From IMG/VR virus record IMGVR_UViG_3300032286_001250, positions 1 to 52,226 of that record: 52,226 bases of DNA; one strand, 5' to 3'. Below the pieces are notes generated by a model. The model saw only the letters and a list, made by a program, of their open reading frames with translations, did no database searches and was not told the DNA's origin. Below, one piece after another: positions 36,772-46,593 of this stretch. The DNA is from a virus. How positions within the stretch are numbered: the first letter of the stretch is position 1; the number at the start of each line of letters is the position of its first letter. The translations under genes were made by a program, and so were the position numbers.

Positions 36772-38055
36772 TTACTTGGTGGCGGTGAGAGGACGCTTCC
36801 AGGCTTCCGCTTGCCGTTGCCGGTAAGCCGAGACCGGCTGGTCGGCGTCGTGACGCTGCGCTCCGCGCAGGGCGGTGCGAAGGCGGGAGGTGTGGTCGAC
36901 CGCGTCGCCGCGCTCGTCTTCACCGTCCTCGTCGTCTTCCTCTTCGTCGTCACCTTCCTCGTCTTCGAGGTCGTCCTCGGAGTCGTAGTGGGCGGCGAGC
37001 AGGCCGTCGACCACGCCGTGGACGTATTCGTCGCTGGCGTCGTCGGAGGGGGAGGAACCGGTCAGGTTCTCGAAGGCTTGGGCGTAGAGGTCGTCGTCGC
37101 CGATGCCGTCGAACTTGAAGTCAGGCTCGAAGGCGGGGGACAGGCGTTGAAGGGTGGAGAGGCGGGCAGCGACCAGTTGGTCGAGCTCCAGGGCGTCGAT
37201 GCGAGAGGCGCCTTCACCGTCGCTGTTCCCGAGAGCGTTCTCGAGGGCGTCGGCGCGGCCTTCGGCGGATTCCTTTTCGGTGGCGAGGGTTTCGAGTGCT
37301 TCCTCCAGCTCGTCAACCCTGGCTTGCAGGGCTTCGTTGTCGGAGGTGGCGGCCTGCAGCTGGCGTCCCATGTCCCTGGCGAAGGACTGGACCGCCGTAG
37401 CTGCTTCCGCGGGCAGATCGATCTCCAGGCCGTCGAGTTTGACGGTAGCCATGAGGGGAGATGCAGTTGGATTGATGGGTGACACCGAGTCGTCCTCGTG
37501 CTCGGCCACGGCGTCAGCCGCATCCATGCGATCGAGGAGAAGTCGAACCTCAGGGCCGGCACGGCCTCGGGGGACGATGGCGATGTGGTTGACCCTGATG
37601 TTGCGCTGGACGCCGTCGTAGGACTCGCCCTCGGGGGTGAATCCGGGGGTGGGGTCGAAGTCGACCTTGTAGCCGGCGGAGACCTCGGTGGCCTCTTTGC
37701 GCTTGATGCGCTCGACGGAATCTGCGTCGGTGACGACGAGAGCCACTTCTACAAAGCCATCAGAGAACTTGACTTGGGAGCCGGATGTTCCCTTGCTGAA
37801 TTCGCTGGTGTTTGTTGCGTCGAGGAGGACCGGGGGGTGGGTCCACGTCACGGGTTTCATGCCGAACGTCGCGAGGGTGTCGGGGTTGCCGACTTCCTCG
37901 GGCGGGCGATATTCCCGGACCTGGGAGCCATCAGCACGCCGGTACAGCTGTGTGCCCGTGCGAGCCGCTCGACACCAGACCCTGAGGTAGCCCTCGGGGG
38001 TGGTTTCGCTCCTGGTGATAGGGGCGAAGTCGTAGCGGCAGACTGATGCGTCCAT
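36772..38055 (-). CDS. Prohead protease-scaffold fusion (DUF2213-like)
   Basis: A 427-residue protein. Residues 1-175 resemble the DUF2213 protease: RSETTPEGYLRVWCRAARTG, VTWTHPPVLLDATNT, VALVVTDADSVERIKRKEAT, EVSAGYKVDFDPTPGFT and IRVNHIAIVPRGRAGPEV. H158 and nearby polar residues are candidates for catalysis. Residues about 200-290 form a coiled coil (DNEALQARVDELEEALETLA), and the rest is very acidic (DLEDEEGDDEEEDDEDGED) before a basic tail, as in scaffolds. An in-frame ATG (37450-37452, MATVKLDGLEIDLP) could produce a separate scaffold without protease. Confidence 0.75.
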   Translation of the reverse strand: MDASVCRYDFAPITRSETTPEGYLRVWCRAARTGTQLYRRADGSQVREYRPPEEVGNPDTLATFGMKPVTWTHPPVLLDATNTSEFSKGTSGSQVKFSDGFVEVALVVTDADSVERIKRKEATEVSAGYKVDFDPTPGFTPEGESYDGVQRNIRVNHIAIVPRGRAGPEVRLLLDRMDAADAVAEHEDDSVSPINPTASPLMATVKLDGLEIDLPAEAATAVQSFARDMGRQLQAATSDNEALQARVDELEEALETLATEKESAEGRADALENALGNSDGEGASRIDALELDQLVAARLSTLQRLSPAFEPDFKFDGIGDDDLYAQAFENLTGSSPSDDASDEYVHGVVDGLLAAHYDSEDDLEDEEGDDEEEDDEDGEDERGDAVDHTSRLRTALRGAQRHDADQPVSAYRQRQAEAWKRPLTATK

Positions 38056-38117: not shown

Positions 38118-38333
38118 GTGGCGATTCACAGGCAGCTTGTAATGTGTCGACGACTGCGTGTACTACGTGAGGAGAAGTTGTTGACGCAGAGTGACGTTGC
38201 AGAGAAGCTGGGGGTTAGTCAGGCTGCGTATTCAAGGCTGGAGAAAGGTGAGATTGAGGTATCGCTGAATAAGCTGATCAAGTTGAGTGAGTTGTATGGG
38301 TTGTCGCTTGCGGTGTTGTTAGAGGGGGTTTAA
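38118..38333 (+). CDS. XRE-family HTH regulator, lone plus-strand gene
   Basis: A 71-residue protein from GTG 38118, or 63 residues from ATG 38142. It is almost entirely a helix-turn-helix domain: RVLREEKLLTQSDVAEKLGV, SQAAYSRLEKGEIEVSLNKL, KLSELYGLSLAVLL. It is the only plus-strand gene between 11.7 kb and the right edge, divergent from the protease-scaffold gene and convergent with the kinase-like gene (9-base gap). The imperfect palindrome CCGCAGAGCGG (about 38098-38108) in the 62-base divergent gap is a candidate operator. Its AT-rich DNA differs from the head genes. It may repress late genes or act as a Cro/CI-like switch, or be a moron. Confidence 0.8.
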   Translation: MAIHRQLVMCRRLRVLREEKLLTQSDVAEKLGVSQAAYSRLEKGEIEVSLNKLIKLSELYGLSLAVLLEGV

Positions 38334-38342
38334 GTTTTAGCT

Positions 38343-40025
38343 TTATGTAGTGGCCACTGGTGTGCCGAAAGGTTTTTTGCGCTGAGCTGCAAGACGTGCC
38401 TGGCGTTCCGGTTTAAGGGCCATGAATAAGTTTGCTGGTTTAAGTCCCATATTTTTAGCACCTTGTCTAAATAGTGTTGGATCGTTCATGTTGACCTGTT
38501 CCATAACCTGGCGTTGGAATGTATTGGCGTTGGCGGTTAGTATGCGGCGGGTGAGGCCGGGGATACGAGGCTGATCAGCGCCACTAACAAAACGAGAACG
38601 GGGTTTGCGATCATCCCACAAAAGCTCGGTTTCAATCAGATCGTGAAAACGGTTGATGGCTAGTTCGTACTTGTCCCAAGACTTATTGTAATCACGGGCT
38701 TGCGCTTCTACATTGTTAAATACCCCGGAGTATCTTTTCTGAAAATCGGTGCTGTTTAACCCTACAAAGTCTGGAAGTCTGTCCAAGTCGTACATTATGT
38801 TTTCTACGCCATCGCGGTTGTGTGCTACATGGGGAGCGTCATCGATCTGAGTTGAGTATCCAAAATCAACTAACGCTATTCTTTTGGAACGATCATTAGC
38901 CAGTATATTGCCACCATGGATGTCACCGTGTGCCAAGCCTTCTAGGTGTAGCTTGCGGAACTCTCGCAACGCTTTGACTTTGATAATGAGTGGCGCGTTG
39001 CCTAGGTTGTAACCTCCATTGGAATACACATCCGAAATTTCTTTGTAACCCTGCATGTGCCGCAAGGTCAAAGTTTCTCTAGAATAGCCGTCAGCGCTTG
39101 TGCTGCTGTTTATGGCTAAGGGCTCCGGGACGTTGACTCCTGCAGCGTGAGCTTTGCTCAGTCTGTCGAACTCCCATTCGGCCATGCCTATGTCGGGGTC
39201 CGAGTCACGAAATAGCTTAATCCCGTACTTCTCAGAACTGTGAACGAAATATGTACCAAAAGCACCAGCCCCAGCTTGACAACGCGGTGTGGGCACCATT
39301 GCGTCGAATTTAGCTGGGGCTAGTGTCTTTCCCAGGCTGCCACCGCATTTAGCTTGGGTCTCTGCTTGACGTCTAGCATTTATCTTTTCTTGAACTTCCC
39401 ACTTGTGATCGTGGGCTAAAGCCTCGTCAATAATGCGCTGATTCTCTTCGGGAGAGAGCTTGGGTGTATTGCGTGGGTTTTTAGGCGACTGACGCCACTC
39501 GTCCATGCTTTGGAATTTACGTTTTGCCAAATAAGCACCTCCAGCAATAGCTCCAGCGACAAGAGCGATTTTAGCTGCAGTTACGCCTGCGTTGTTAGTG
39601 GTAGTTCCCGCACCCTTACCGCATTTGTAGCCTTTGGGGATGTGTGAAGCCCCGCAGGGCTTGCCTTTGGCGGCCTCGGGGGAATCCTGGCGCAGCCGGG
39701 GTTTGCCTCCGGCGCCGTTGCGGGCGCGGTTGGTGGAGGGGGCTTCAAGGGTTGTGCCCCCCGAGGACGTGTGAGAGATGTCGGGGCCGCCTTTGCTGTA
39801 GATGCCGCGCCGGCGGCGCTCACGGTTCAGCGCGACACGCCGGTCGACTTCGTTGGGCTGGCGGTTGATGGCCGCCTGGTGGCGCACCTTGCGACGGCGG
39901 GCCTTGGGGTGGGTGCGGTAATAGGCCGTGGAGTCGCCCTCGGGGGCGTCGATCGTTACCAGGCCGAGGACTTTCCCGGCGTGAGCGCGGCGTCGCGGCG
40001 GCTGGTTTTGCCCGAGCACTTCCAC
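38343..40025 (-). CDS. Virion-block protein with kinase-like C-terminal domain
   Basis: A 560-residue protein (GTG 40023-40025, 70-base overlap with the upstream gene). Residues 30-110 are a basic phage module (YYRTHPKARRRKVRHQAAIN, ..., RRRGIYSKGGPDISHTSSGG). Residues 124-135 carry the C-G-x3-I-x5-C motif (CGASHIPKGYKC), and 150-167 a membrane helix (AAKIALVAGAIAGGAYLA). Residues about 250-400 form a kinase fold: Gly-rich GAGAFG, Lys270 (YGIKLF), Glu285, HGDIHGGNIL with Asp368 and Asn373, and DFG at 387-389. All core catalytic residues are present, so phosphotransfer is plausible; the class (RIO, APH or Kdo-like) is uncertain. DNA from about 39600 down is AT-rich, so this domain looks imported. 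Confidence 0.75.
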   Translation of the reverse strand: MEVLGQNQPPRRRAHAGKVLGLVTIDAPEGDSTAYYRTHPKARRRKVRHQAAINRQPNEVDRRVALNRERRRRGIYSKGGPDISHTSSGGTTLEAPSTNRARNGAGGKPRLRQDSPEAAKGKPCGASHIPKGYKCGKGAGTTTNNAGVTAAKIALVAGAIAGGAYLAKRKFQSMDEWRQSPKNPRNTPKLSPEENQRIIDEALAHDHKWEVQEKINARRQAETQAKCGGSLGKTLAPAKFDAMVPTPRCQAGAGAFGTYFVHSSEKYGIKLFRDSDPDIGMAEWEFDRLSKAHAAGVNVPEPLAINSSTSADGYSRETLTLRHMQGYKEISDVYSNGGYNLGNAPLIIKVKALREFRKLHLEGLAHGDIHGGNILANDRSKRIALVDFGYSTQIDDAPHVAHNRDGVENIMYDLDRLPDFVGLNSTDFQKRYSGVFNNVEAQARDYNKSWDKYELAINRFHDLIETELLWDDRKPRSRFVSGADQPRIPGLTRRILTANANTFQRQVMEQVNMNDPTLFRQGAKNMGLKPANLFMALKPERQARLAAQRKKPFGTPVATT

Positions 40026-40957
40026 TTGGCGCGGGAGAGGCAGAGGGGGGTGTTGCGCTCGGCGCCGGAGCAGTCGTAGCCCTCGGATTTCATGTCGCCG
40101 AAGGAACGGGCGCAGTAGTTATCGCCCTTGGAGGTGCCGGGGGCGATGGTGTAGCCCTTGGCGCCGTAGCGGACCTTGTTTTTGCGGCCGGTCTTGGGGT
40201 TGGTGACGACCTTGGTGTACTTCTTGCCGTCCTCGGTGTCCTTCTGAGCTTGGGCCTTTCTCAAACCTGAGGAGGTTGGGACGCAGTTGGGTACTTCGCG
40301 CTTGCCCTTGCGCTTCGTGCCAGCCTGAACGTAGCCCTCCCAGCAAGCATCGTTGCGCGAGATGGGGAAACTGCGGAGTAGCCGGGGGGTGAGGAGAGCG
40401 TCGCCTCGTGGGGTGTCTGAGAAGCGGGGCTTGCGGTAGCCGGGTTCGTAGCGGCGGCGCAGCTTCTCGATGGTGAGGTTATGCCGGCGCACACCGCTGC
40501 GGACGGAGGCACGGGCGGCTTTGCCGGACTTGTGCATGGCCGAAGCCACGGCGACGGTGCGCTCGATCTCGGCCTGGGCTGCCTTGGAGATGGCCTGCTC
40601 CGCTTCGCGGTTGGCGGACTGAGCAGCCTTGTGGAGGCGTTCAGTCTTGGACGGTGGACGCATCGTGGCGAGGGGGCCGTCCTCAGGGAAGCGCATCGAA
40701 GGTGGCTTGGCCGTGGCGCGGTGGACGGCCTCGGTGACACCCTGCTGTGCGGCGCGGCGGGCACGGCCGGGAGCGTTGAAGATGGCCTTGCGGGATCCCT
40801 TGAACAAGAGCGCACCGCCGACGGCGCCTGCGGTGAGGCCGGCGGCCAGGGCCGCTCGGCGAGGGATGGCGCCACCCTTGTGGCATGTCTTTCCCTGGGC
40901 GATGGCGCCCTGGCCACACTTCAGGTCGAGGCGGAGGGTGGAGGGGGTCAGGCTCAT
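39956..40957 (-). CDS. Virion-block protein with Cys motif, membrane helix and phage Cys-rich domain
   Basis: A 333-residue protein (ATG 40955-40957). Residues 14-25 are CGQGAIAQGKTC, followed by a membrane helix at about 33-53 (RAALAAGLTAGAVGGALLF) and a basic helical middle. Residues about 205-230 have CWEGYVQAGTKRKGKREVPN with a following CVP. The last 70 residues have YGAKGYTIAPGTSKGDNYCA, then GYDCSG and LCLSRAKWKCSGK. The CW-x-GY...NCVP and KWKCSGK elements recur in phage structural operons from memory, without a known function. High Lys/Arg content suggests nucleic acid or membrane contact inside the capsid. Confidence 0.6.
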   Translation of the reverse strand: MSLTPSTLRLDLKCGQGAIAQGKTCHKGGAIPRRAALAAGLTAGAVGGALLFKGSRKAIFNAPGRARRAAQQGVTEAVHRATAKPPSMRFPEDGPLATMRPPSKTERLHKAAQSANREAEQAISKAAQAEIERTVAVASAMHKSGKAARASVRSGVRRHNLTIEKLRRRYEPGYRKPRFSDTPRGDALLTPRLLRSFPISRNDACWEGYVQAGTKRKGKREVPNCVPTSSGLRKAQAQKDTEDGKKYTKVVTNPKTGRKNKVRYGAKGYTIAPGTSKGDNYCARSFGDMKSEGYDCSGAERNTPLCLSRAKWKCSGKTSRRDAALTPGKSSAW

Positions 40958-41407: not shown

Positions 41408-42847
41408 TCAAGCGCCGATGCGTTGGAGTGATTGAGTCACTTCGCGGGCGTGCTTGTGGCGGAGGGCCTGCATCTCACTGCGTGAGGCGCCTTTGGTACG
41501 TGCTCGCTTCAGCTCGGCTTCTTGGCGCGGGCCGAGTTTACTCATCGCAGATTGAATCTTCGCGTTATTGGCTCGTCCTGCTTGATATTGACCGCGAATA
41601 GCCTTGCCGGTCTTATAGCCCAGAGCTTCGGATGCACCTCCCAGTGCGCCAACACCAGCGCCGTAGGCAGTACCGCCTGCCGCACCAAGGAGGGCACCCT
41701 TCACAGCACCGCGACCACCGCCGGTCAATGCGCCGATCGCAGCACCCCCGAGGGCACCACCGATAGATCCACCAATCGCGCCCTGTTTCACCCCGAGTTT
41801 CGCCATCTGCTTCACGCTGGATGGGTCTACACCACGCTTCACGTAGTAGGGATGGACGGTGTTAGTAAGTCCACCGAGCGCTCCACCACCTGTCCACCTG
41901 TTCTGTGTAGGGCCTCCGCCTGCACCTTTGTGGCACTTCTCGCCTTTGGAGATGGCGCCTGCACCACACTTGATGTCTTCGCGGATCAGGCCGTCGAAGA
42001 CGGCGGCGTCAAGGGTGAAGCCGTCGGCGTACATGGAGTCTGCCCACGGGCTCTTAATGCTCCCGCCAGGGCCGAGCTTCGGTTTGGGCATCGGCTTGTT
42101 GATACGGCGGTTGACCATGCGCTCTTTGTACAGCTTGTTCTTGCCGACTTCGAGACCGACTCGGGCTTTGCGTGCCCCGGTGGCGAAGCCGCTGCGGGCG
42201 CGGCCGAGACCTGAGCTGGCGGTGCGGCGGGCCATGCCCATACCGGTGCGGGCTTTGCGCATGCCGGTGGAACCGGCGGTGCGCAGGCGGGGGGCAGCTT
42301 TGCGCAGGGCAGAGCCGGCACGACGGAAGGCGCCGCTGCGGTGTCCGCCGTAGGCCAGGGCGGCGACGCCTCCGGCGATGGCGGCCCCGGTGGCCACCCG
42401 GCGTGCGGTGCTGCCGTTGTTCTGGCTCTGGCCGCCGGAGGAGCGGAAGTCTTGGCGGAGGGCGTCCTCGGTGTCGAGGCGGGCACGGATGTAGGCCTTG
42501 GGCTTGTTCTGGATCCCGAGGTCGCAGGCGTCGAGGTACTCCTGCGGGGAGAGGGCGTCGTTGTTCATGCGGGAGTTTTTGCGACCGGGGTTGTAGAGCT
42601 CGCCAGGTCCGGCGGAGGTGTCACCTTCCTTCTTGCCCGTGCAGGGTTTGCCAGCAGCGCAGGCGGAGCAGGAGCCGTCCTTGACGGCCTTGCGGCCACG
42701 ACGACCGCGGCGTCCTTTGGACATGGGGGGCATGTCTTCGGAGCCTTCGCGCATCTGCTCGTCGGGTGATTCTGTGGACTCGTCGTCCGGGGATTCACCG
42801 GCCTCGGGGGCTGAAGGCTTGGGGCGACGGCGCATTGCGGCGGGCAT
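41408..42847 (-). CDS. Virion-block protein with Cys motif and glycine-zipper membrane domain
   Basis: A 479-residue protein (ATG 42845-42847). An acidic N-terminus leads to a first Cys cluster at 60-69 (CSACAAGKPC), a hydrophobic segment at 151-166 (VATGAAIAGGVAALAY) and a very basic stretch at 170-260. The shared motif CGAGAISKGEKC follows at 294-305. Residues about 356-404 are a glycine zipper (AIGGSIGGALGGAAIGALTG...GAAGGTAYGAGVGALGG), a pattern able to insert in membranes and oligomerise, as in phage ejection proteins. The end is basic and helical. I infer a capsid-internal protein that enters the host envelope with the DNA. Confidence 0.6.
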   Translation of the reverse strand: MPAAMRRRPKPSAPEAGESPDDESTESPDEQMREGSEDMPPMSKGRRGRRGRKAVKDGSCSACAAGKPCTGKKEGDTSAGPGELYNPGRKNSRMNNDALSPQEYLDACDLGIQNKPKAYIRARLDTEDALRQDFRSSGGQSQNNGSTARRVATGAAIAGGVAALAYGGHRSGAFRRAGSALRKAAPRLRTAGSTGMRKARTGMGMARRTASSGLGRARSGFATGARKARVGLEVGKNKLYKERMVNRRINKPMPKPKLGPGGSIKSPWADSMYADGFTLDAAVFDGLIREDIKCGAGAISKGEKCHKGAGGGPTQNRWTGGGALGGLTNTVHPYYVKRGVDPSSVKQMAKLGVKQGAIGGSIGGALGGAAIGALTGGGRGAVKGALLGAAGGTAYGAGVGALGGASEALGYKTGKAIRGQYQAGRANNAKIQSAMSKLGPRQEAELKRARTKGASRSEMQALRHKHAREVTQSLQRIGA

Positions 42848-42883: not shown

Positions 42884-43759
42884 TTATCGCTGTAAAGGAG
42901 TGGGGGTAATCTGCTCAAAACTTGCTGGCTTGTTCAGCGGTACGGTTTCAGGGAGACGTACAGCCTTCGCAACATCTTTCTTATGTGTTTCACGCATCTT
43001 CTCGTATTCGGGATCCATTGCATTGGTGTCTTCATCCCAGGGGGCCAAATAGCACCGGCAGCGGGGATGGATGGGAACTTTGACGTCTCCGCGTTTGTAG
43101 ATGTGGCCAGCACGAGGGGCACAGTATGGGCAGCTCCTGTCATCTGCAGTCGCGTAGTACATAACCTGCGAGATGCCGCGAGCTGCGTAGTAGGTGTCTG
43201 AAGCGTTGTTGTAGGCGCGAAGCGCCTCGGTGCGGACGATGACGTTGGCGCGGGACTTGACGATGCCGAGGCGGCTGCGCATGTCCTGGACCATGGCGTC
43301 AGTGGGCCGGCCTTCGGCAATGCCTTGGGCGACGGTGGTGGCAGCGGTTTCGGCGAAGGTCTGGCCGTGCTTGGCGAGGTAGCCACGGGCCTGCTTCGCA
43401 GCCTCGACGGTGGCCTCGATGGGAATGGAGACGTCGATGCGGCCGTGGCCGGGAAAAGCGGCCTCGGTGAGATCGTTGGCAATGGCCAGGCCTTGACCTT
43501 GGGCAGAGAGGGCGAGGTTTCGGAAGATTCGGTCATAGGCGTCGACCCGATCGGGGTTGTAGGCCGGGACCAGGAGGCGGAACTCGCGCAGCAGGGACAG
43601 GTTGCGCTGGGCCGGGTCGATGATGCCGGCCTTCATCTGGGCGCGGACACGGATCACCAGGCGGCGGAACGCTGCATCGAGGACACCGTTGAGGAGGCGG
43701 ATGGTGCCGTCCTCGGTGGTGCGCAGGAGTTCGTTGTAGCGCTCAATCAGGCTGGACAC
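42884..43759 (-). CDS. Head morphogenesis protein (MuF-like)
   Basis: A 291-residue minor head protein (GTG 43757-43759, overlapping the upstream gene by 13 bases). The N-terminus is helical (IERYNELLRTTEDGTIRLLN). The C-terminal part matches the Mu gpF family: VIVRTEALRAYNNASDTYYA, YYATADDRSCPYCAPRAGHI, ..., PIHPRCRCYLAPWDED. The CPYC...HPRCRC cysteines and histidine probably bind zinc. MuF proteins bind the portal inside the head, and in some phages carry toxin domains; here the flanking genes may play that part. About 60 residues follow the Cys-rich end. Confidence 0.8.
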   Translation of the reverse strand: MSSLIERYNELLRTTEDGTIRLLNGVLDAAFRRLVIRVRAQMKAGIIDPAQRNLSLLREFRLLVPAYNPDRVDAYDRIFRNLALSAQGQGLAIANDLTEAAFPGHGRIDVSIPIEATVEAAKQARGYLAKHGQTFAETAATTVAQGIAEGRPTDAMVQDMRSRLGIVKSRANVIVRTEALRAYNNASDTYYAARGISQVMYYATADDRSCPYCAPRAGHIYKRGDVKVPIHPRCRCYLAPWDEDTNAMDPEYEKMRETHKKDVAKAVRLPETVPLNKPASFEQITPTPLQR

Positions 43760-46593
43760 TTGGCAGCCTGGTAGTGGCGCTTAGCTGCTAGGAACATGCG
43801 CACACGGGGTGGTAGCTCATCCTCAGCGTCACCACGGATCATATTGCCGATGTACTCGAACTGGTTGTCCGGGATCTCAGTGAACTTACCCTGGTTTTTC
43901 AGTGCCCAGAGTTTGTCGCCTTTCAGATTGGGAAGAGCCTTAAAGCCCATCTTCTCATAGATTGATTTGCGCTTGCCGCCTTTGCCGTCAGCTTTGTGCG
44001 GCACAGCGAACAAGAAAGCGTCATCCGGTAGCATATCGAGCTGAGCACTATACATCGCTTTTGTGGTCTTGATCAGCTGCTTGGCTTGTTTGCTTGGGAT
44101 GTCTGTGGCGGCGTCGTATTTTGTATCCACAGTGAATCCAAGGCCGAATTGCTGAAACTTCCCGACGTCAGCTTTGTGCTCAGCGCCGAAGGTTAGCAGG
44201 CTGTCACCCACGGAGCCGATAGAGATGTGCCCACCACTAGGTGTGGACCATGTGGAGAAATTATTGTCGATGTCTACAGCTCTGATTTGAGCTCCCTGGG
44301 CTTTTAGTGCCATGTGGGCTGCCCCCAGCTTGGCATCACCTACAAGCCTACTGACAGGGTCACGGAAGTTCTCGGGGAGCTTGGCGATAGCCTGCTTCAC
44401 TTGTTTGGCTGAGAGACCTTGTATGGCTTGTTGACTCAGGTTAGGGACAAGTGTTGAACGATTCTTGTACACAAACAAGCTGCCTGCCGTGAGAGCAGCG
44501 GCCCCGGTGACAGCAACTACAGCCGCGGCTGTCTTTACTTTTGAACGTGTGGAACTTTCTGGTGCGCTGGGCTGTGAAGGTTCTCTCTGACTGGGCGCAG
44601 CACTGGATGAACCTGGGGTTTCACCGCATTTGTGGCCTTTAGGGATGAAGCTGCGACCACAGGGCTTGCCCGTGTGCTGCGCTGCAGTCTGGAAATCCAG
44701 GCGACGTTGGACCTCCAGGAAGGAACGCACTCGTGGGGGGAGAGCGTCGCCGCGGAGGTGGGCCTGGTCGTAAGCCGTTTCTGCAGAGCCACGACTCCCG
44801 TATATGCGCTGTTTGTCAAGTCCTTGTACCCGCTCAAGTGAGCTCACAGCTTGAGCACGAGTCTCGCGCCTGGTTACATTCTTAATGGTGACTGTTTTAT
44901 TAAAATTGATGCCGCTCAAGTCGTAGTATTGGCGACCTGACGGATTGGCTAGCTGCTGGCGCTCCCAAAGTCTAATTTTACTCTCTTTCCCTGGTACTGC
45001 GTATTCGAGGCCGGGTTGGCGTTGGATAATGCGGAATGCCTCAGCTATAGATGTTACTTTCTGGCCAGACCAGTCGGCAGCAGCTGTAAGAGCTTCGCGA
45101 TCAGTAATGGCGAAACTATTGACGCCTCTTACCTTTGTGTTGAAGAAGGCTTTGTTTACAACCACCCCAGCCGAGGATCCGGGGACGGTGAGCCGGCTAT
45201 TCATAACGGCTGCTACGTGTCGTGCATGGGCGTATTCAGCATCTTGCAGGAGTTGGGCGCGATTTCGTGCGCTGCCTTCTAATTTTGTATCTAGTTTCAA
45301 TTCATCCGCAGTACGCGCATAGAACTTGTCGAATTGACTGAGAGTATCGTTATACACACGCTTGGCTTCGCCGTTAATCACCTCTGTCCTATTCTGGAAC
45401 AATAGATAGCGTTCGACTGTGTCGACGGCGTCGCTGCGCATGCTGTCTGGGAGATGCACACCGCTCTCGGTGAGAACACTGTTTGCGAATGCTCGGCGAG
45501 TGCGCTGCCGCGTTAGATCTACGCCACGCTGTACGGCCAGTAGCTGGAGTGCGCTTGATTGATCTTGAATTTGGTCTGCCAACGCACGGACAACTGCATG
45601 ATCGGTGCTGAGCCGACTGATGTTACTACGATCGCGCAAGCTGAAAGTGTCAGCCAGGAATTCTTTGGTGGCATCGCCGCTGTACACAATACGATTCGTA
45701 GGCTTGCCGAAACGATCTTTCACGCGAATGTCAAAGAGCTTTCGTGTGCTTTCACGCAACCATTCCTGACGAGTTACGCCTGGAGTGTTTTGAGCAAGGC
45801 GCACTTCTTCGTTGATGTGGCTGCTGATTGCTGCGGAGTAGCTCGTCGTCGTCGAAATGGTGCGGGGGAGCGGGGCGCCTGGCCGCTCAATCTGAGCCAG
45901 CATCGAGGCTGGACCAACACTGTTGGTGTGACGCAGGCTTTGGGCGATGGAAGCTGCGCTCTGTCGCCCTCGGAGGCGGGTGTTTTCCCGTGGGCCGAGG
46001 GCGCTGGGATCGAAACGGCGGACCACGCCCATGACGGCGTTCTCTCCGGTATCCATTGCCCGACTGAAAGTGTCGAAAGCTGCCTTGTTAAAGGGTTGGT
46101 AGACCCGATCCCTATAAAAAGGGATATTGGCGAGACCACGGTGTGCAGCAATACCACCAGCGACGGCGGCTGTGATACCTACAATTAAACCTGTACGCTT
46201 CAGTAGCTCTTTCTGCTTCTCTTTCTTGTCTTGAATGTTGCCGGGAGTGGCTTTGACCACGCCGCGGACGATGGCGCGGCGGCCGGCGTCTACCTCGGCG
46301 ACGCTGCCTTTCTTGATGCCCTTGATGACGCGGCGGAAGCCACGCTCGATTGAGGCGGCTCCGCCGACGGGGTCGGTGGTGGCGGCGCGGAGGTGGTTGT
46401 CGGTGCCCTCACCCTTGAGGCGGCAGTCCCAGTTGGGTGGGATGCAGCGGTTGCCACAGAGTTTGTTGGGTGGGGTGCATTTGACGTTGCGGCGCGTCTT
46501 GCCGGAACGGCTGAGGCCGGGGGCGTCGAGGCGGGCCTGGGCGGCCAGGAAGGTGGCGGCGCGAATCTCGGAGCGATCTGGTGTTGTGGTCAT
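43747..46593 (-). CDS. Large modular virion-block protein with two Cys motifs
   Basis: A 948-residue protein from ATG 46591-46593, with Shine-Dalgarno GGGAGGTG six bases upstream and an ATGA overlap with the portal gene. First unit: FLAAQARLDAP, then the motif CGNRCIPPNWDC (residues 46-57), a membrane helix at about 133-150 (RTGLIVGITAAVAGGIAA), and some 450 residues of unknown domain. Second unit: LPPRVRSFLEVQRRLDF, motif CGRSFIPKGHKC (645-656), membrane helix KTAAAVVAVTGAAALTAGS, and a domain ending DAFLFAVPHK...SIYEKMGFKALP, which resembles the C-terminus of GNAT acetyltransferases. A third partial unit closes the protein: LPPRVRMFLAAKRHYQAAKC. It looks like repeated cassettes fused in one chain. 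The 43.8-46.2 kb DNA is AT-richer than the portal gene. Confidence 0.6.
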   Translation of the reverse strand: MTTTPDRSEIRAATFLAAQARLDAPGLSRSGKTRRNVKCTPPNKLCGNRCIPPNWDCRLKGEGTDNHLRAATTDPVGGAASIERGFRRVIKGIKKGSVAEVDAGRRAIVRGVVKATPGNIQDKKEKQKELLKRTGLIVGITAAVAGGIAAHRGLANIPFYRDRVYQPFNKAAFDTFSRAMDTGENAVMGVVRRFDPSALGPRENTRLRGRQSAASIAQSLRHTNSVGPASMLAQIERPGAPLPRTISTTTSYSAAISSHINEEVRLAQNTPGVTRQEWLRESTRKLFDIRVKDRFGKPTNRIVYSGDATKEFLADTFSLRDRSNISRLSTDHAVVRALADQIQDQSSALQLLAVQRGVDLTRQRTRRAFANSVLTESGVHLPDSMRSDAVDTVERYLLFQNRTEVINGEAKRVYNDTLSQFDKFYARTADELKLDTKLEGSARNRAQLLQDAEYAHARHVAAVMNSRLTVPGSSAGVVVNKAFFNTKVRGVNSFAITDREALTAAADWSGQKVTSIAEAFRIIQRQPGLEYAVPGKESKIRLWERQQLANPSGRQYYDLSGINFNKTVTIKNVTRRETRAQAVSSLERVQGLDKQRIYGSRGSAETAYDQAHLRGDALPPRVRSFLEVQRRLDFQTAAQHTGKPCGRSFIPKGHKCGETPGSSSAAPSQREPSQPSAPESSTRSKVKTAAAVVAVTGAAALTAGSLFVYKNRSTLVPNLSQQAIQGLSAKQVKQAIAKLPENFRDPVSRLVGDAKLGAAHMALKAQGAQIRAVDIDNNFSTWSTPSGGHISIGSVGDSLLTFGAEHKADVGKFQQFGLGFTVDTKYDAATDIPSKQAKQLIKTTKAMYSAQLDMLPDDAFLFAVPHKADGKGGKRKSIYEKMGFKALPNLKGDKLWALKNQGKFTEIPDNQFEYIGNMIRGDAEDELPPRVRMFLAAKRHYQAAKCPA

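What the first reader, a model, noticed from the sequence alone, without database searches (positions are those of the whole stretch)
38343..39300. Apparently intact protein kinase domain encoded in a phage head operon
The 38343-40025 product has a Gly-rich loop (GAGAFG), Lys270, a candidate Glu285, HGDIHGGNIL (Asp368, Asn373) and DFG 387-389: the full set of kinase core residues. It is fused behind the Cys tag and a membrane helix, and its DNA is AT-richer than the N-terminal part. A kinase among head genes, and not early genes, suggests delivery with the virion, so that it could act on host targets at the moment of infection, or a role in virion assembly.
Basis: partly seen in the sequence, partly recalled or inferred. 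Interest (0 to 1): 0.85.

Follow-up and report, generated by a model that had tools for sequence, protein, structure and literature searches.

The report
Swappable kinase cargo in phage heads
A cyanobacterial virus encodes a real, apparently active kinase as one of several interchangeable enzyme payloads, apparently built by a programmed reading-frame slip onto a head protein that carries a small cysteine tag and a membrane helix, which suggests the virus carries swappable enzymes into its host cell together with its DNA.

Summary
Lys270, Glu285, HGDIHGGN and DFG are invariant or nearly so in 25 related viral sequences. The fold is kinase, and close pairs are under purifying selection (dN/dS mostly 0.05-0.27).

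The gene model changes. The kinase ORF has no convincing start of its own. It lies in the -1 frame of the upstream 333-aa gene, over an in-phase lambda-type slippery heptamer G_GGA_AAG. That arrangement is found in 22 distinct contexts; sister phages encode the same fusion in one frame.

The kinase sits behind a carrier: R-x-D, a Cys tag (CG-x3-IP-x3-KC) and a Gly-rich helix. Such tags recur several times per head operon with different enzymes: kinases, alpha/beta-hydrolases, LRAT/NlpC-like, DnaJ, metallopeptidase-like.

The kinase is accessory, present in 11 of 43 sister loci. A phage about 97% identical up to the helix carries a metallopeptidase-like domain instead; two others of 96-98% identity lack the module. 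An assembly role is therefore unlikely. A virion-borne effector is the best reading. Supporting this, three kinases that a later paper lists as detected in virions of isolated cyanophage S-CBWM1 bear a similar N-terminal Cys tag.

Packaging, injection and targets remain unproven here.

The parts
38343..40025 (-). ORF holding carrier plus kinase (560 codons); probably translated mainly as a -1 frameshift extension of the 333-aa gene, giving an 871-aa fusion
39971..39977 (-). Slippery heptamer G_GGA_AAG, in phase with the upstream gene, whose stop follows six codons later
   Evidence: same heptamer, phase and nearby 0-frame stop in 22 distinct contexts from related phages
39956..40957 (-). Upstream 333-aa gene (0-frame product): own Cys tag and Gly-rich helix; its C-terminal region corresponds to the part called DUF5872 in relatives
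40883..40918 (-). Cys tag CGQGAIAQGKTC of the 333-aa protein
39699..39935 (-). phrog_6437 domain inserted in the carrier; a separate downstream ORF in several sister phages
39681..39692 (-). R-x-D motif (RQDS) just upstream of the tag
   Evidence: R-x-D precedes 106 of 112 tags
39621..39656 (-). Cys tag CGASHIPKGYKC
   Evidence: invariant Cys/Gly/Ile positions
39525..39575 (-). Gly-zipper hydrophobic helix AKIALVAGAIAGGAYLA
38333..39530 (-). Exchangeable cargo segment: kinase here, metallopeptidase-like domain in L050
38526..39272 (-). Kinase domain (Gly loop 39255-39272, Lys270 39216-39218, Glu285 39171-39173, HGDIHGGN 38907-38930, DFG 38859-38867)
44626..44661 (-). Cys tag CGRSFIPKGHKC in the 953-aa head-operon protein, followed by a hydrophobic helix
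46423..46458 (-). Four-Cys form of the tag near the N-terminus of the 953-aa protein (KLCGNRCIPPNWDC)
41933..41968 (-). Cys tag CGAGAISKGEKC in the 479-aa head-operon protein
36772..38055 (-). DUF2213 head maturation protease with five R-x-D-A motifs

Best explanation
The kinase is an interchangeable effector carried in the virion. Ribosomes translating the 333-aa tagged head-operon protein slip back one base at G_GGA_AAG in a minority of passes. This makes an 871-aa fusion in which a second R-x-D / Cys tag / Gly-zipper-helix carrier precedes the kinase. The carrier probably sorts the protein into the procapsid, perhaps with trimming near R-x-D by the DUF2213 protease. The helix probably helps the cargo reach or cross the host membrane during DNA ejection. 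There the kinase most likely phosphorylates host proteins early in infection. Shown here by sequence: kinase fold and core, purifying selection, frameshift signal, carrier-cargo architecture, cargo exchange, accessory status. Inferred: packaging, trimming, membrane role, injection, protein substrates.
For: Kinase core is conserved and the fold is kinase; NG86 dN/dS is mostly 0.05-0.27. Frameshift: the heptamer is in phase in 22 distinct contexts, although GGA is only 10% and GGG 8% of Gly codons; L017 encodes the predicted fusion SGKTSRRDGLTPGKVVGLARIDAP in one frame. Carrier: 103 strict tags against 0 expected in shuffled ORFs; R-x-D within 25 residues upstream of 106 of 112 tags (background 14.5%) and a hydrophobic helix within 60 residues downstream of 66 of 112 (background 10%). 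The isolated cyanophage CL131 repeats this in 6 of 7 and 5 of 7. R-x-D-A is concentrated in the protease (67 vs 6.3 expected), and R-x-D lies at the MCP N-terminus. Cargo exchange: L050 is about 97% identical through the helix, then carries an unrelated HELGH domain; L048/L049 lack the module; the kinase occurs in 11 of 43 loci, tags in all 43. Tagged cargo also includes other kinases, LRAT/NlpC, DnaJ and alpha/beta-hydrolases. S-CBWM1 has exactly four four-Cys tags (0.05 expected), all N-terminal; three lie on its RIO-, ChoK- and APH-like kinases, and PMC10665884 says such kinases were detected in its virions.
Against: No virion proteomics exists for this phage. CL131 virion proteins were identified by LC-MS/MS, but the list is in a supplement not held here. 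The S-CBWM1 tag matches by pattern and Cys spacing only; a profile of the clade's tags does not score it significantly. The S-CREM2 virion kinase has no tag. About 40% of tags lack a clear helix within 60 residues. RNA structure downstream of the heptamer is not significant (-26.6 against -22.9, sd 3.4). The tags in the clade are homologous, not independent events. The kinase family resembles protein and small-molecule kinases about equally, so the substrate class is open.
Confidence: 0.66

Rival explanations
1. Late-acting kinase: it is made late from the head operon and acts in the producing cell (for example on superinfection or host physiology) without being packaged.
For: No direct proof of packaging; accessory cassettes in late operons can act in the producing cell; purifying selection fits any function.
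Against: It shares its carrier and R-x-D element with other head-operon proteins, is joined by frameshift to a tagged head-operon protein, and similar tags mark S-CBWM1 kinases reported from virions.
Confidence: 0.2
2. The kinase phosphorylates head proteins and is needed for virion assembly or maturation.
For: Conserved position just upstream of protease, MCP and tail genes when present.
Against: Absent from 32 of 43 sister loci and from phages 96-98% identical nearby; replaced by a metallopeptidase-like domain in L050.
Confidence: 0.04
3. The kinase and the adjacent antisense HTH gene form a HipBA-like toxin-antitoxin pair.
For: A 71-aa HTH ORF of Xre type lies next to the kinase gene on the other strand.
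Against: The HTH is present in all 43 loci examined whether or not the kinase is there; where extra ORFs intervene it stays with the protease; it is transcribed away from the protease start, like a promoter regulator; S-CBS4 and CL131 also have an antisense regulator there without this kinase.
Confidence: 0.05
4. Small-molecule kinase: an APH/Kdo-like enzyme phosphorylating a sugar, lipid or other small molecule rather than a protein (compatible with virion delivery).
For: The best Pfam hits are Kdo/WaaP and APH; the segment between DFG and the next helix is short.
Against: RIO, ABC1 and Pkinase models also hit nearly all members, and PDB fold matches are protein kinases.
Confidence: 0.25
5. 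The slippery heptamer is incidental and the kinase gene starts at its own GTG (40025).
For: A GTG exists in frame; overlapping starts are common in phages.
Against: Same heptamer, phase and nearby 0-frame stop in 22 distinct contexts, rare codons, and in-frame fusions in L007, L017, L022 and L023.
Confidence: 0.08

Closest known systems
Virion-associated kinases of cyanophages (S-CBWM1, S-CRM01, S-TIM5, S-CREM2; PMC10665884)
   Same: APH/ChoK/RIO-like kinases reported in cyanophage virions; S-CBWM1 ones carry a similar N-terminal Cys tag.
   Different: Those are myoviruses with stand-alone kinase genes; no carrier helix was seen, no frameshift link was looked for, and sequence similarity to this kinase is marginal.
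Polyvalent proteins (Iyer et al. 2017, PMC5512222)
   Same: Multidomain effectors encoded with virion genes and predicted to be injected; include kinase domains and other enzymes; cassette recombination suggested.
   Different: Their kinase group lacks the C-terminal subdomain and has an insert between His and Asp; neither applies here. The recurrent Cys tag and helix carrier and the frameshift were not found described.
MuF polymorphic toxins (PMC5576092)
   Same: Constant phage-head part plus exchangeable enzymatic C-terminus.
   Different: The MuF protein here is a separate gene without the kinase; the carrier is a Cys tag plus helix.
T4 Alt and internal proteins with capsid-targeting sequence
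   Same: Short targeting leader, prohead protease nearby, enzyme cargo injected with the DNA (established knowledge; Alt is described in PMC5512222).
   Different: A different motif (R-x-D plus Cys tag) and a membrane helix; cleavage not shown.
Lambda gpG-GT frameshift at GGGAAAG
   Same: Identical heptamer and -1 direction (established knowledge).
   Different: Here it joins an enzyme cargo module to a head-operon protein rather than making a tail assembly chaperone.

Membership tests
Protein-kinase-like superfamily | Gly loop, VxK Lys, alpha-C Glu, HxD...N catalytic loop, DFG | tested here: met
   All present; catalytic residues invariant in 25 sequences
Protein-kinase-like superfamily | Two-lobed kinase fold | tested here: met
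   All 50 listed PDB matches of each model are kinases or kinase homologues, probability 1.00; whole-model TM-scores are modest, 0.3-0.5
Protein-kinase-like superfamily | Phosphotransfer activity | not testable with these tools
   Needs a bench assay
Kdo/WaaP kinase family (PF06293) | Match above curated cut-off over the domain and no better family | tested here: inconclusive
   28.9 bits vs 21.3, but only residues 284-395, and APH scores the same
Polyvalent-protein kinase group (PMC5512222) | Loss of C-terminal subdomain; insert between catalytic His and Asp | tested here: not met
   Several helices predicted after DFG; His-Gly-Asp contiguous
Polyvalent proteins (general) | Multidomain effector encoded among virion genes | tested here: met
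   Tagged polyproteins with two or more modules in head operons
Polyvalent proteins (general) | Injected into the host with the DNA | not testable with these tools
   Indirect support only
MuF polymorphic toxins | N-terminal MuF domain in the same protein | tested here: not met
   MuF is the separate gene 42884-43759
Programmed -1 frameshift gene pairs | X_XXY_YYZ heptamer in phase at an ORF overlap, conserved | tested here: met
   G_GGA_AAG in 22 distinct contexts; in-frame fusion in sister lineages
Programmed -1 frameshift gene pairs | Stimulatory downstream structure | tested here: inconclusive
   Fold about 1 sd below shuffles
T4-type capsid-targeted cargo | Leader cleaved by prohead protease | not testable with these tools
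   R-x-D shared by protease, MCP and carriers is suggestive only

The most novel reading that the evidence does not exclude
Cyanobacterial phages use a general, previously undescribed capsid-cargo system. A short R-x-D / Cys-tag / Gly-zipper-helix carrier sorts interchangeable enzymes into the virion and helps move them across the host membrane. A built-in -1 frameshift sets the copy number of one cargo slot, and similar tags occur on virion kinases of unrelated cyanomyoviruses.
Probability: 0.5. Interest if true: 0.88.

Novelty: new variant of a known kind. Interest (0 to 1): 0.78.

Why it matters
Kinases have repeatedly been reported in cyanophage virions with no known sorting signal or targets. 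This locus gives a concrete, testable candidate signal, explains how different enzymes can be swapped into the same slot, and suggests how dose could be set by a frameshift. The tag also offers a handle for predicting other injected phage effectors among unannotated head-operon proteins.

Tried and rejected
Whole-protein search of viral contigs found nothing; the core segment and an alignment worked. The plasmid search was negative and the phage-isolate search hit only the inserted phrog_6437 part. The GTDB scan gave one remnant in a Synechococcus MAG. AT-richness as a family trait was rejected; it belongs to this phage's cargo segment and also to the L050 cargo. The HTH-kinase toxin-antitoxin idea was rejected because the HTH tracks the protease. 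A profile search for the S-CBWM1 tag was not significant, so that link rests on pattern and position. Wholesale horizontal transfer of the kinase was not supported: its distances follow the protease moderately (Spearman 0.60-0.82). Two paper searches for a described cyanophage Cys-tag or cargo system found none.

Full report
What is there. The gene is on the minus strand of a 52-kb virus record. The record has terminase, portal, MuF, DUF2213 protease, MCP and a central tail fibre J-like protein, so it is probably a siphovirus. Its nearest isolate by MCP is Synechococcus phage S-CBS4 (56%). A remnant of the carrier region lies in a Synechococcus MAG, so the host is probably a unicellular cyanobacterium (inference).

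The kinase. Pfam Kdo and APH exceed their cut-offs, and RIO, ABC1 and Pkinase follow closely, so the domain is an atypical kinase-like enzyme of no single named family. Models (pLDDT 70 and 77) match kinases or kinase homologues in all 50 PDB hits listed for each. Most of the viral-library hits are kinases too. Close pairs show dN/dS mostly 0.05-0.27.

The frameshift. The ORF has no good start of its own. It is in the -1 frame of the 333-aa gene, and the overlap carries GGGAAAG read as G_GGA_AAG by the upstream gene, with the 0-frame stop two to six codons later. All loci listed with separate frames have it; 22 distinct sequence contexts keep the heptamer although GGA and GGG are rare Gly codons here. 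In L017 the same junction is encoded in one frame (SGKTSRRDGLTPGKVVGLARIDAP), matching the predicted slipped product SGKTSRRDAALTPGKVLGLVTIDAP. L007, L022 and L023 are also fused. The predicted product is 871 aa. Frameshifting itself was not measured.

The carrier. Before the kinase come R-x-D, CGASHIPKGYKC and a Gly-zipper helix. Every relative whose N-terminal part is complete has the tag directly before the kinase. The same unit recurs through the head operon: 103 strict tags against 0 expected in shuffled ORFs, R-x-D just upstream of 106 of 112 (background 14.5%), and a helix after 66 of 112 (background 10%). The isolated Aphanizomenon phage CL131, far removed, has the unit seven times, with alpha/beta-hydrolase domains among the cargo. 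R-x-D-A is also enriched in the DUF2213 protease (67 vs 6.3 expected), and R-x-D stands at the MCP N-terminus in this clade, S-CBS4 and CL131. A shared processing or docking site of head proteins is the simplest reading, but cleavage is not shown.

Cargo exchange. Among 43 sister loci with enough upstream sequence, all have tags and the antisense HTH gene, but only 11 have this kinase. L050 is about 97% identical to the window through the helix (last identical base 39531, residue 165) and again from 38332. Between these points it encodes an unrelated HELGH metallopeptidase-like domain, a weak Pfam match. L048 and L049 are 96-98% identical nearby and lack the module (39995 joined to 38332). L105 has a third cargo behind the same frameshift and tag. 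Across the set, tagged segments include several kinase lineages, LRAT/NlpC-like, DnaJ, alpha/beta-hydrolases and DUF5872. This rules against a role in assembly and fits an effector slot.

Link to virions. [quoted passage not shown] 2018, not read here), and that kinases recur in other cyanophage virions. In S-CBWM1 the four-Cys form of the tag occurs exactly four times (0.05 expected), always N-terminal. Three of the four are its RIO-, ChoK- and APH-like kinases; two of their annotated starts are too short to include the whole tag. A profile of the clade's tags does not score them significantly, so common descent of the tag is not shown.

Conclusion. Shown: intact conserved kinase, frameshift signal, carrier-cargo architecture and cargo exchange. 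Inferred: packaging, trimming, membrane passage, host targets. It works like T4 Alt/internal proteins, MuF toxins and polyvalent proteins, but fails the membership tests for the MuF family and for the polyvalent-protein kinase group. It is best called a new variant of virion-delivered polymorphic effectors.

Noticed in passing
window 38118-38333 (+): A 71-aa Xre-like HTH ORF antisense inside the late operon, divergent from the protease gene with a 62-bp gap. It was found in all 43 sister loci checked; S-CBS4 (gp021) and CL131 (gp037) also have an antisense regulator at that position. Possibly a regulator of the protease-MCP-tail operon.
   Followed up: partly
window 39699-39935 (-): The phrog_6437 domain is inserted inside the carrier here (and in L050), but is a free-standing ORF after the kinase in L011, L017, L018, L020 and L022.
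   Followed up: partly
L045 (CL131 gp044, gp045, gp047, gp048): An isolated Aphanizomenon phage carries a set of Cys-tag modules between MCP and tape measure; gp047 and gp048 hold lipase-like GHSAG domains.
   Followed up: partly
L043 20359-21324 and L044 17824-18702 (S-CBWM1 gp113, gp161): Annotated starts are downstream of or inside the N-terminal Cys tag, so the published proteins miss all or most of it.
   Followed up: partly
L038 1168-1530: Decayed remnant of the carrier-linker region (about 58% identity over 81 aa) in a Synechococcus UW140 MAG, on the same contig as large ORFs that look DISARM DrmA/DrmB-like from memory (not tested).
   Followed up: no
window 46400-46480 (-) and homologues: The four-Cys form of the tag (CxPPNxxCGxRCIPPxWDC) looks like half an LDL-receptor class A repeat; probably convergent, not tested.
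   Followed up: no
L007 1063-6234: A single 1724-aa head-operon polyprotein with several tags, two different kinase domains, a DUF5872 domain and a domain shared with the window's 953-aa protein.
   Followed up: partly
L049 1795-3741: A phage about 98% identical nearby that lacks this kinase has a different tagged kinase (HGDLTLDNA...DWG) further upstream in the head operon.
   Followed up: partly
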